Shown here: piece after piece, positions 12,386-17,249 of the stretch
How the letters are laid out: every line of letters begins with the position of its first letter
How positions within the stretch are numbered: position 1 is the stretch's first letter
Assembly: GCA_016931085.1 (NCBI GenBank)
Contig: JAFGFO010000237.1
Location: 1-22,436, forward strand
Reading direction: 5' to 3'
Length of the DNA stretch: 22,436 bases
Source of the DNA: Thermoflexales bacterium
GTDB lineage: Bacteria; Chloroflexota; Anaerolineae; Fen-1058
Notes under the pieces: model-generated
What the model saw: only the letters and a program-made list of their open reading frames with translations
What the model was told of the DNA's origin: nothing
Databases searched by the model: none
Translations under genes and position numbers: made by a program

Positions 12386-12760
12386 CCTACTGACGTCTCG
12401 CTTCCAGTACGGGCGCATCCCCATCGCGCGCGTCACGGGCATGACGAACAACAGGCCGCTGTTTGGCGCGTTAAAGTCGCCGCCCACAGCGCGCTCGGTG
12501 GCCGCGATCAGGCCATCCAGGTCCAGATCGTCATCCACGACGACGAACACGGTCCGGTGAGGGTGTTCCTCGCTTTCCAGCAAATGCACAATCGAGGGAA
12601 ACAGGGGCAGATCGTCGCGCTGTGCGCGCGCGTTTCGAATCCCTTGCAGCCCAATGCTTTCCAGGATCGTCACGCCTGACACGCCAAGTTCTTCCCAGGC
12701 GTCCAGCACGGCATGGCATTTATCAGCATCAGGCATGACAACAAAGATCGCATTAGGCAT
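12383..12760 (-). CDS. P-II-like (GlnB/CutA-fold) small regulatory protein
   Basis: A 125-residue protein with a ferredoxin-like P-II pattern. MPNAIFVVMPDADKCHAVLDAWEELGVSGVTILESIGLQG aligns with the first beta-alpha-beta of GlnB-type proteins (…GVxGxTV-E-x-GFG). The region 45-68, where a T-loop would lie, is unlike GlnB and has no uridylylated Tyr. RTVFVVVDDD at 69-78 and SGLLFVMPVTRAMGM at 101-115 match the later strands (GKIFVLPV in P-II). Such proteins bind adenine nucleotides or metals and control a partner transporter. The ATG overlaps the antiporter stop by 8 bases (ATGCCTAA), so the two are translationally coupled and probably form a functional pair. Fold assignment rests on pattern similarity alone. 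Confidence 0.65.
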   Translation of the reverse strand: MPNAIFVVMPDADKCHAVLDAWEELGVSGVTILESIGLQGIRNARAQRDDLPLFPSIVHLLESEEHPHRTVFVVVDDDLDLDGLIAATERAVGGDFNAPNSGLLFVMPVTRAMGMRPYWKRDVSR

Positions 12761-13994
12761 GCTCGGCCTCCTTTTTAGCCTCCCCGGCCCGGCCAGTCTC
12801 GCCAGGCCGGGCGATATACGTCAGCCGCAGCAAAGGCGGCGTGACCAGCGTGGTGGCCAGCACAAGGAGCGTGACAACCGAGAACAAGTCTGTCTCGATA
12901 ATGCCGGCCTCCACACCCACCGAGGCGATAATCAATCCCACCTCGCCCCGGCTGACCATTCCCACACCCACTCGCAGCGATTCGTGGTTGGTGAATCCGC
13001 CCATCCGCGCGCCCAGGCCACACCCGATCACCTTGGCAACGATCGCCACTCCGATTAACACCAGGGCAAACGGCAAGTCCCGTCCGGCCAATTGGTGCAG
13101 GTCGGTCTCCAGGCCAATGTTCACGAAAAAGATCGGGACAAAGAAGGCGTAGGTGATCGTGTGCATCGCGCGCGCGATTTTGTCGCGCAGGTGGCTGCGC
13201 CCAAATCCAAGCCCGGCGATGAATGCGCCGGTGATGGCCACCAGCCCGCCGGCAAGCTCAGCCGACCATGCAAACGCCAGGGCTGACACCATGACGAACG
13301 AGATCAAGCCCTCGCTGATGGGCTGGCGATCTACCCAGGCGGCTATGCGCGGAAGCAACAAGAATGCCACCGCGGTGGCCAAGCCGAGATAAAGCGCCAT
13401 CTTGAGCGGCACGAGCCAGAGTCCACTGCCGGATGTGCCGCCCGTCATCGCCATAAAAGTCGACAGCAGCAAGACAACCACCACGTCGTCAATCACGGCT
13501 GCCCCCAACAAGGCCAGGCCCTCACGTGTGCGCAGCTTGCCCAATTCCAGCAAGGTCTGCGCGCTGATGCTGACGCTGGTCGCCGTCAGAATGATACCGA
13601 CAAACAAAGCTGAGGAGACCTGGTAGCCAAACAGCCACGCCGCCAACCAGCCAAAAACCAACGGGACGAGCACACCATTGAGGCCAGCCAGCAGTGATAC
13701 GCGGCCAGAGCGGAGCATTCTTTCCAGGTCGATTTCCAGCCCGGCCATGAACATCAGGCAGATCACGCCCAGTTCCGCCAATTCGAGAATGGTGACGTGC
13801 AACAGCTTGGGATCATCCGGGTTGGCGAGGATTCCTTGGCCCAGCAAGTCGAGCAGGCTGGGGCCGAGCAACACACCCACCAGCAGCTCGCCCAACACGG
13901 CCGGCTGGCGCAGCCAGTTGGCGATCCGCCCGCCAGCCTTGGCACCCGTGATGATGATGGTTAGCGAGAAAAGCAGTTGAAGAAAAGGCGTCAT
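12753..13994 (-). CDS. CPA2-family cation/proton antiporter (Kef/NapA type, membrane domain only)
   Basis: Exchanges Na+ or K+ for protons across the cytoplasmic membrane. 413 residues, essentially all transmembrane (11-13 segments). Family features: PAVLGELLVGVLLGPSLL (31-48), ELGVICLMFMAGLEIDL (74-90) and GAAVIDDVVVVLLL (164-177) with the paired Asp (D169, D170) that binds ion and proton in electrogenic CPA2 members. There is no TrkA-N/RCK domain at the C-terminus, where Kef-type channels carry their regulatory part; the coupled P-II-like protein may fill that role. The ATG at 13994 begins a good first helix. The longer frame continuing to 14372 runs antisense through two tRNA genes and is not real. 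The preceding promoter (14048-14020) fits this start. Confidence 0.9.
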   Translation of the reverse strand: MTPFLQLLFSLTIIITGAKAGGRIANWLRQPAVLGELLVGVLLGPSLLDLLGQGILANPDDPKLLHVTILELAELGVICLMFMAGLEIDLERMLRSGRVSLLAGLNGVLVPLVFGWLAAWLFGYQVSSALFVGIILTATSVSISAQTLLELGKLRTREGLALLGAAVIDDVVVVLLLSTFMAMTGGTSGSGLWLVPLKMALYLGLATAVAFLLLPRIAAWVDRQPISEGLISFVMVSALAFAWSAELAGGLVAITGAFIAGLGFGRSHLRDKIARAMHTITYAFFVPIFFVNIGLETDLHQLAGRDLPFALVLIGVAIVAKVIGCGLGARMGGFTNHESLRVGVGMVSRGEVGLIIASVGVEAGIIETDLFSVVTLLVLATTLVTPPLLRLTYIARPGETGRAGEAKKEAEHA

Positions 13995-14019
13995 GTCATG
14001 ACCTGTTTTTAGATGCCCA

Positions 14020-14048
14020 AGTGTACCAGTTATCCTTCTAAATTGCAA
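14020..14048 (-). promoter_or_regulatory. Promoter of the antiporter/P-II-like operon
   Basis: On the minus strand TTGCAA (14048-14043), 17 bases, TACACT (14025-14020), followed 25 bases later by the antiporter ATG. It is divergent from the tRNA-Ala promoter. Confidence 0.5.
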
Positions 14049-14089
14049 GACGTTCCCCGGGATTGCGCTATCCCCTCCCCAAAGCTCGT

Positions 14090-14118
14090 TTGACAAAGCG
14101 CCCACGCCATAGTATACT
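14090..14118 (+). promoter_or_regulatory. Promoter of tRNA-Ala(CGC)
   Basis: TTGACA (14090-14095), 17-base spacer, TATACT (14113-14118); predicted start about 14125, seven bases before the mature tRNA 5' end. Confidence 0.8.
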
Positions 14119-14131
14119 AGGCTCCACACAG

Positions 14132-14204
14132 GGGCCTGTGGCTCAGTTGGGAGAGCGTTCGGTTCGCATCCGAGAGGTCGCGGGTTCGAATCCCGCCAGG
14201 TCCA
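14132..14204 (+). tRNA. tRNA-Ala (anticodon CGC)
   Basis: A complete 73-base cloverleaf: acceptor GGGCCTG/CAGGTCC containing the G3:U70 pair that marks alanine tRNAs, D arm GCTC/GAGC, anticodon stem TTCGG/CCGAG with loop TTCGCAT (anticodon CGC, 14165-14167), and T arm GCGGG-TTCGAAT-CCCGC. The CCA end is not encoded. A 12-bp palindrome (14217-14228, GGTTCGCGAACC) follows without a T-run. Confidence 0.97.
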
Positions 14205-14257
14205 CTCCGTAGAAGTGGTTCGCGAACCGCCTGGTGCAAGTGGGTATGTCAAGGCGG

Positions 14258-14286
14258 TTGACAAACTTGTAAATTGCGTATAAAAT
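14258..14286 (+). promoter_or_regulatory. Promoter of tRNA-Ala(GGC), probably also of leuS
   Basis: TTGACA (14258-14263), 17 bases, TAAAAT (14281-14286). The predicted start (about 14293) lies six bases before the tRNA. No other promoter-like sequence lies between the tRNA and leuS, so leuS may be read from this site through the tRNA and the T-box platform. Confidence 0.75.
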
Positions 14287-14298
14287 AGGTGCATTATT

Positions 14299-14371
14299 GG
14301 GCCCATAGCGCAGTTGGGAGCGCGTCTCAATGGCATTGAGAAGGCCGAGGGTTCGAATCCCTCTGGGTCCA
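14299..14371 (+). tRNA. tRNA-Ala (anticodon GGC)
   Basis: A complete 73-base cloverleaf: acceptor GGGCCCA/TGGGTCC with G3:U70, D arm GCGC/GCGC, anticodon stem TCTCA/TGAGA with loop ATGGCAT (anticodon GGC, 14332-14334), T arm GAGGG-TTCGAAT-CCCTC, discriminator A. The CCA end is not encoded. It lies only 12 bases upstream of the T-box antiterminator of leuS. Confidence 0.97.
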
Positions 14372-14383
14372 CTTGGCTACGAT

Positions 14384-14440
14384 CAGGGTGGTAGCGCGAA
14401 GTGCAGCCCCTTCGTCCCTGTGGCGAAGGGCTGTGTGTTT
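14384..14440 (+). promoter_or_regulatory. T-box antiterminator/terminator platform of leuS without Stem I
   Basis: AGGGTGGTAGCGCG (14385-14398) matches the conserved T-box (AGGGUGGNACCGCG) at all but one base. Antiterminator: CAGGG (14384-14388) pairs with CCCTG (14416-14420); a seven-base bulge TGGTAGC (14389-14395) carries UGGU, complementary to the ACCA end of a tRNA with discriminator A; GCGAAG (14396-14401) pairs with CTTCGT (14410-14415). The competing terminator pairs 14404-14414 with 14424-14433 (one bulged C), followed by TGTGTTT. The two structures share 14410-14420, so they are mutually exclusive as in true T-boxes. No Stem I with a Leu specifier is possible, because tRNA-Ala ends 12 bases upstream. 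Confidence 0.8.
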
Positions 14441-14456
14441 AAGGTGAGCTAAGCTT

Positions 14457-17249
<2,793 letters not shown>

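What the first reader, a model, noticed from the sequence alone, without database searches (positions are those of the whole stretch)
14258..14459. T-box switch without Stem I, joined to a tRNA-Ala gene, upstream of leuS
A full T-box expression platform (antiterminator with 7-base UGGUAGC bulge, competing terminator, both sharing 14410-14420) sits before leuS. Known T-box leaders carry Stem I with a specifier codon, which gives tRNA identity. Here only 12 bases separate the platform from a complete tRNA-Ala(GGC) gene, so Stem I cannot exist. Options: (a) a tRNA gene replaced or was inserted over Stem I, leaving a non-specific sensor; (b) RNase processing of the tRNA releases a minimal leader that reads only free NCCA ends; (c) the tRNA body in cis acts as a scaffold. 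The bulge UGGU fits both tRNA-Leu and tRNA-Ala (discriminator A). Such a tRNA/T-box hybrid is not a class I know.
Basis: partly seen in the sequence, partly recalled or inferred. Interest (0 to 1): 0.85.

Follow-up and report, generated by a model that had tools for sequence, protein, structure and literature searches.

The report
tRNA gene nested in leuS riboswitch
In many bacteria a tRNA-Ala gene sits inside one arm of the RNA switch that controls the leucyl-tRNA synthetase gene; this window holds a stripped-down descendant that keeps the tRNA and the on/off hairpins but has lost the sensing part.

Summary
In detail: intact tRNA-Ala(GGC) (14299-14371), T-box antiterminator/terminator (14385-14433), leuS (14457), no Stem I. 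The reading needs changing. Related loci show a widespread arrangement: a class I leuS T-box with Stem I (usually a CUC leucine specifier), Stem II and pseudoknot upstream, and the whole tRNA-Ala(GGC) gene nested in the loop of Stem III. In 30 of 30 genomes searched, the nested gene is the only tRNA-Ala(GGC)-like match. Record titles include Firmicutes, Chloroflexi, Armatimonadetes, Caldisericota and Coprothermobacterota. A LeuS tree groups the window with four such loci, but the window has lost Stem I, Stem II and the 5' arm of Stem III; a promoter now lies directly before the tRNA. Seven loci in a related order kept promoter and tRNA-Ala and lost the T-box. The window most likely works as a tRNA terminator with fixed read-through into leuS. 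Ten full-text searches found no report of a tRNA gene nested in a T-box.

The parts
14132..14205 (+). tRNA-Ala(CGC); in 11 relatives the same tRNA stands 5' of the T-box Stem I
14206..14298 (+). Interval that holds Stem I, Stem II, pseudoknot and the 5' arm of Stem III in relatives (192-336 nt there); 93 nt here, no Stem I found
14258..14286 (+). Promoter-like site TTGACA, 17 nt, TAAAAT, directly before the tRNA
   Evidence: consensus match only
14299..14371 (+). tRNA-Ala(GGC), G3:U70, A73, no encoded CCA
14375..14380 (+). GGCUAC at the place of the 3' arm of Stem III; no partner upstream better than chance; GCUAC 14376-14380 can pair with GUAGC 14391-14395 in the bulge
14385..14419 (+). T-box antiterminator: A1 14385-14388/14416-14419, bulge UGGUAGC 14389-14395, A2 14396-14401/14410-14415
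14404..14433 (+). Competing terminator hairpin, tail UGUGUUUAA after it
14457..17249 (+). leuS, 930 aa

Best explanation
Class: a leuS class I transcriptional T-box whose Stem III is capped by a complete tRNA-Ala(GGC) gene. Each leader transcript contains the tRNA whether it stops at the T-box terminator or runs into leuS, so the terminated leader is a tRNA-Ala precursor (inferred). Only read-through should depend on uncharged tRNA-Leu, held by Stem I with specifier CUC (inferred from anatomy). RNase P and 3' processing then cut the tRNA out and separate the sensor from the leuS mRNA (inferred). Window: the sensor (Stem I, Stem II, pseudoknot, 5' arm of Stem III) is lost and a promoter lies directly upstream of the tRNA. 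What is left is promoter, tRNA-Ala, terminator with its old antiterminator, leuS. It most likely serves as the tRNA's terminator with a roughly fixed share of read-through feeding leuS, no longer steered by tRNA-Leu charging.
For: Class: 113 of 120 loci of an identity-blind pattern scan are tRNA-Ala(GGC) + T-box, LeuS downstream in 110 of 120. Full Rfam T-box spans the tRNA at gathering score in 6 of 15 loci given. Stem I model: 104 of 107, 78 of 81 without the training rows, all on the right strand and 23-173 nt before the tRNA. Stem III arms flank the tRNA: cognate mean 15.1 against 10.9 re-paired, maximum 11.8 of 2000; AA after the arm in 76 of 78. Only tRNA-Ala(GGC)-like match in 30 of 30 genomes. 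Window: tree places it with L079, L075, L089, L091, SH-aLRT 96; tRNA-Ala(CGC) upstream as in these; 24 identical bases shared with L089; no Stem I; Stem III score 10, chance level; promoter before the tRNA, none found between tRNA and leuS; bulge AGC in none of 108 relatives. Seven loci of a related order have promoter + tRNA-Ala and no T-box.
Against: No transcript data. The window's antiterminator/terminator energy gap is ordinary (7.6 kcal/mol, rank 23 of 108) and its T tail is within the relatives' range (35 of 108 have as few T or fewer), so the platform does not look badly decayed and may still switch. Stem I presence in the four nearest loci rests partly on model training rows; Rfam scores for L075 and L089 (70.9, 60.8) are below gathering. 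The tree is a quick one and L089 fills 37% of its columns. One genome only shows the window's form.
Confidence: 0.72

Rival explanations
1. Working minimal T-box: the window's antiterminator still senses uncharged NCCA ends (tRNA-Ala, tRNA-Leu and others with A73) without Stem I, giving a general starvation response.
For: Antiterminator helices and UGGU intact; energy gap ordinary; a second Stem I-less locus, L115, keeps Stem III and the whole platform.
Against: No Stem III or purine string in the window, which PMC7583486 (passages) calls indispensable; GA instead of AA before the switch; bulge AGC unique among 108 relatives and able to pair with GCUAC upstream. L115's close relative L211 has Stem I, so L115 looks like another recent loss.
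Confidence: 0.14
2. Processing-coupled switch: folding or RNase cleavage of the tRNA-Ala just upstream decides between antiterminator and terminator in cis.
For: Only 12 bases separate tRNA and platform; the tRNA-platform order is kept in lineages that lost Stem I (window, L115).
Against: Platform sits at 9-31 nt from the tRNA in relatives without a fixed distance; no motif tying the two was found; termination is usually decided before processing (general knowledge).
Confidence: 0.07
3. Assembly artefact: the window's contig lost Stem I between two tRNA-Ala genes.
For: Two tRNA-Ala genes flank the gap; L016 shows that a contig can be damaged here (it lacks the 5' half of the tRNA).
Against: The gap holds 93 nt of unique sequence with a good promoter-like site, and both tRNAs are intact; a collapse between repeats would fuse the tRNAs.
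Confidence: 0.05

Closest known systems
Class I T-box riboswitch, Rfam RF00230 (leuS leaders)
   Same: Relatives: Stem I, Stem II, pseudoknot, Stem III, antiterminator with UGGN bulge, terminator, leuS downstream. Window: antiterminator, terminator, leuS.
   Different: Relatives carry a complete tRNA-Ala(GGC) gene in the Stem III loop. The window in addition lacks Stem I, Stem II, the pseudoknot and Stem III.
Short T-boxes (class II / translational, with insertions in Stem III or helix A2; PMC7583486, passages only)
   Same: Shortened sensor, and insertions in the discriminator domain are known.
   Different: Those keep a Stem I with specifier, and the passages seen mention no tRNA gene as insert.
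Ordinary tRNA gene with its own promoter and terminator upstream of a coding gene (as in L147, L163, L181, L182, L188, L189)
   Same: Promoter, tRNA-Ala(GGC), terminator, then leuS.
   Different: The window's terminator is the T-box one and still carries the competing antiterminator, and leuS follows at once instead of 400 nt or more downstream.

Membership tests
T-box riboswitch (RF00230), window element | Stem I with specifier | tested here: not met
T-box riboswitch (RF00230), window element | Stem III with RRRxG and AA flanks | tested here: not met
   score 10 = chance; GA in place of AA
T-box riboswitch (RF00230), window element | Antiterminator with 7-nt UGGN bulge and competing terminator | tested here: met
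   bulge ends AGC instead of ACC
T-box riboswitch (RF00230), window element | Covariance model score at gathering threshold | tested here: not met
   15.8 bits against 93
T-box riboswitch (RF00230), window element | Read-through induced by uncharged tRNA | not testable with these tools
   needs in vitro or in vivo assays
T-box riboswitch (RF00230), related loci with nested tRNA | Stem I upstream of Stem III and antiterminator | tested here: met
   104 of 107 loci; Rfam full model at gathering score in 6 of 15 given
T-box riboswitch (RF00230), related loci with nested tRNA | Specifier matching the regulated gene (Leu, CUC) | tested here: met
   GAACUC in 87 of 99 loci with 250 nt upstream, related CUC motif in 10, neither in L083 and L113
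tRNA-Ala gene | Cloverleaf, GGC anticodon, G3:U70, A73 | tested here: met

The most novel reading that the evidence does not exclude
An undescribed class of T-boxes carries the genome's only tRNA-Ala(GGC) gene as the cap of Stem III of the leuS switch. One transcript is at once riboswitch, tRNA precursor and mRNA leader: the OFF product is a pre-tRNA, and tRNA maturation cuts the sensor off the mRNA, making the switch single-use and tying the alanine tRNA supply to the leucine switch. Lineages such as the window's shed the sensor and keep tRNA and platform.
Probability: 0.55. Interest if true: 0.9.

Novelty: new variant of a known kind. Interest (0 to 1): 0.78.

Why it matters
T-boxes sense tRNAs; that a T-box also encodes one, apparently the only copy of an isoacceptor, nested inside its own structure is, as far as my searches show, not described. 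It would make tRNA processing part of the life of a riboswitch, and it offers a natural series (switch with tRNA, switch without, tRNA without, and the window in between) for studying how a riboswitch is built and lost. Isolates named in record titles carry it (Syntrophomonas, Thermosyntropha, Desulfofundulus, Desulfovirgula, Orenia), so it is directly testable.

Tried and rejected
Rejected: a tRNA in place of Stem I (relatives have both). Rejected: Stem I hidden between the two tRNA-Ala genes of the window; the hairpin 14225-14259 holds CUGGUGCAAG, reminiscent of a Stem I apical loop, but scores as noise. Rejected as chance hits of the pattern scan: L006, L009, L021, L053, L072, L095, L109. 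Of tRNA-Ala + T-box type but without LeuS in the downstream DNA held: L051, L052, L080. My first motif test for Stem I was too strict (50 of 99 loci with enough upstream DNA) and was replaced by the covariance model. I first read the window's T tail as degenerate; one search shows 35 of 108 relatives with as few T or fewer, so I do not lean on it. tRNA copy number in the window's own genome could not be tested. I recalled a Weinberg motif named LOOT as a possible earlier description; one search found no paper with that phrase, the 2017 Weinberg and 2008 Vitreschak papers are not held, and no family other than tRNA and T-box matches the element at gathering score in the window or the 15 loci given, so mention there cannot be excluded.

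Full report
What is in the window. One search shows, in order on the + strand, tRNA-Ala(CGC) 14132-14205, a 93-nt interval, tRNA-Ala(GGC) 14299-14371, a 13-nt linker, an antiterminator/terminator pair 14385-14433 and leuS from 14457. Rfam's T-box model matches 14382-14419 only over its last part, at 15.8 bits against a gathering score of 93. A promoter-like site with 11 of 12 consensus matches lies at 14258-14286, directly before the second tRNA, another at 14090-14118 before the first; the scan reports none between the second tRNA and leuS.

How the class was found. Of the 120, 113 are tRNA-Ala(GGC) with a T-box: 111 by ARAGORN, plus L014, cut by the edge of the stretch held (its tRNA is confirmed), and L016, damaged. 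The other 7 I count as chance. LeuS lies downstream in 110 of 120 (111 of 121 records with the window). The discriminator is A in 114 of 114 tRNAs and CCA is encoded in 81 of 114 (these 114 include the window and two unrelated tRNAs, L072 and L109). G3:U70 in 108 of 108.

Stem I is upstream of the tRNA. Rfam's full T-box model (1-219) spans the tRNA at gathering score in 6 of 15 loci given, best 133.2 bits in L005; L075 and L089 score 70.9 and 60.8, below gathering. The printed alignments (L005, L013, L008) put Stem I, Stem II and the pseudoknot 5' of the tRNA and the two arms of Stem III on either side of it. A covariance model built from 26 Stem I segments hits 104 of 107 loci at E below 1e-5 (53 of 53, 51 of 54); without the 26 training rows, 78 of 81. 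Each of the 104 hits is on the strand of the tRNA and ends 23-173 nt before it. Six of the 113 loci were not given because their upstream DNA is cut (L047, L062, L069, L084, L103, L112). The misses are L014 (cut), L016 (the contig lacks the 5' half of the tRNA) and L115, which lacks Stem I but keeps a short Stem III arm and the platform; its close relative L211 has Stem I. GAACUC is present in 87 of 99 loci with at least 250 nt upstream, a related CUC motif in 10 (L115 among them), neither in L083 and L113.

The tRNA is nested in Stem III. For 104 elements (window included) I scored the best helix between the 60 nt before the tRNA and the linker after it: mean 15.1, against 10.9 for 2000 random re-pairings of flanks (maximum 11.8); the window scores 10. 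Individually the signal is weaker: the true partner is in the top 5% of all flanks in 38% of elements. With a strict anchor, 78 of 103 loci have a helix of score 11 or more, with 64 distinct arm pairs, and 25 do not; the 3' arm is followed by AA in 76 of the 78, AA stands at that place in 95 of 103, and the RRRNG purine motif precedes the helix in 64 of 78. Median linkers are 6 nt (5') and 9 nt (3', CCA included). These are the flanks that PMC7583486 (passages seen) describes as the purine string of the discriminator.

The nested tRNA looks like the working copy. In 30 of 30 genomes searched (30 of the 113, picked by hand) the only tRNA-Ala(GGC)-like match is the one in the T-box, its position checked in all 30. 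Eight of these genomes have further pattern matches that I judged by eye not to be tRNA-Ala; I did not run ARAGORN on them. The reversed-pattern control also gave one match in each of 3 of the 30 genomes. Many of the genomes are MAGs and may be incomplete.

Breadth. Pattern tallies: 50 of 63 genomes in the class of Syntrophomonas palmitatica (a slightly stricter pattern), 13 of 43 in the phylum of an Armatimonadota MAG, 20 of 251 in the phylum of L085, an Anaerolineales MAG, 24 of 119 in the phylum of Desulfofundulus, 16 of 81 in the class of a Sphaerobacter MAG. Some genomes occur in more than one tally. Reversed-pattern controls show 0 in these five tables. These are counts of a tRNA-Ala(GGC)-plus-T-box pattern, not of checked leuS leaders. 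Titles also include Caldisericota and Coprothermobacterota, and MAGs labelled Actinobacteria, Proteobacteria and Desulfovibrio, whose labels I did not verify.

Loss series around the window. In the order of L085, 154 of 154 genomes gave a match to LeuS, some of them weak and perhaps to other synthetases. I examined 70 loci: the 30 returned by the tool plus 40 that I took from the list in its order; 5 of the 70 are places already held. After reading the sequences: 30 have the tRNA inside a T-box (10 of these with a compensated A1 helix, GGA with UCC, which my first regular expression missed); 7 have promoter-like sequence and tRNA-Ala(GGC) without a T-box (L147, L160, L163, L181, L182, L188, L189; a plain terminator hairpin visible by eye in 6, not in L160); 6 have a T-box with an ordinary Stem III and no tRNA (L121, L127, L133, L151, L155, L190); 27 have neither in the stretch held (3 of these hold under 400 nt upstream). 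The Stem I model hits 6 of 6 tRNA-less T-boxes and the 10 of the 30 that I gave it, and 0 of the 7 tRNA-only loci. In 7 loci from genomes whose tRNA-Ala(GGC) lies elsewhere, the tRNA has no Stem I before it and, by eye, a plain terminator after it in 6 of 7.

Where the window fits. A quick LeuS tree of 87 rows puts the window with L079, L075, L089 and L091 (SH-aLRT 96; order inside the group open; L089 fills 37% of the columns). These four have Stem I (but all four were training rows of the model; their sequences are) and tRNA-Ala(CGC) upstream; the spacing between the two tRNAs is 192, 235, 215 and 336 nt in L079, L075, L089 and L091, and 93 nt in the window. L089 and the window share 24 identical bases across the switch. 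The window's bulge ending AGC is found in none of 108 relatives (ACC 104, AAC 2, AUC 2; the search pattern fixed the neighbouring bases). Against a simple relic reading, its antiterminator/terminator energetics are ordinary (gap 7.6 kcal/mol, rank 23 of 108) and its T tail is within the range of relatives.

Mechanism. Shown: anatomy, conservation, loss series. Inferred: co-transcription, processing, leucine response. For the class I infer that the terminated leader is itself a tRNA precursor and that maturation of the tRNA separates sensor and mRNA after the decision. For the window I infer steady tRNA-Ala synthesis with a fixed share of read-through into leuS; residual tRNA sensing is possible but disfavoured by the loss of Stem III.

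Literature. Ten full-text searches of an open-licence library (listings and starts of abstracts seen) and term look-ups in six papers (PMC7778990, PMC2494555, PMC7583486, PMC4919913, PMC12452182, PMC4052509; passages only) show no tRNA gene inside a T-box. PMC2494555 reports ileS and trp T-boxes for the two Dehalococcoides it covered (passage). Most subscription papers are not held, so earlier mention cannot be excluded.

Noticed in passing
L030, L065, L066, L075, L079, L089, L091, L097, L114, L118, L119: In these 11 relatives tRNA-Ala(CGC) stands 5' of Stem I, so the T-box sensor lies between two tRNA-Ala genes in what may be one transcript.
   Followed up: partly
L138, L141, L146, L153, L154, L156, L157, L158, L159, L161: The antiterminator helix A1 is changed on both sides (GGA with UCC instead of GGG with CCC), a compensatory change that speaks for function.
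   Followed up: partly
L115 (Peptococcaceae bog_1190): A second locus without Stem I, which keeps a Stem III helix and the platform; its relative L211 has Stem I.
   Followed up: partly
L011, L029, L069, L078, L096, L106: About 1.7-2 kb lie between the T-box and leuS, room for further genes under the same switch.
   Followed up: no
L075:1731-1919: Rfam group I intron match (RF00028, 54.3 bits) near a tRNA, on the strand opposite to the T-box.
   Followed up: no
window 12753-14372, minus strand: The listed 539-aa ORF runs from a far GTG across both tRNA-Ala genes; the true start of this membrane antiporter-like protein is probably near 13995 (function guessed from the sequence, no search run).
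   Followed up: no
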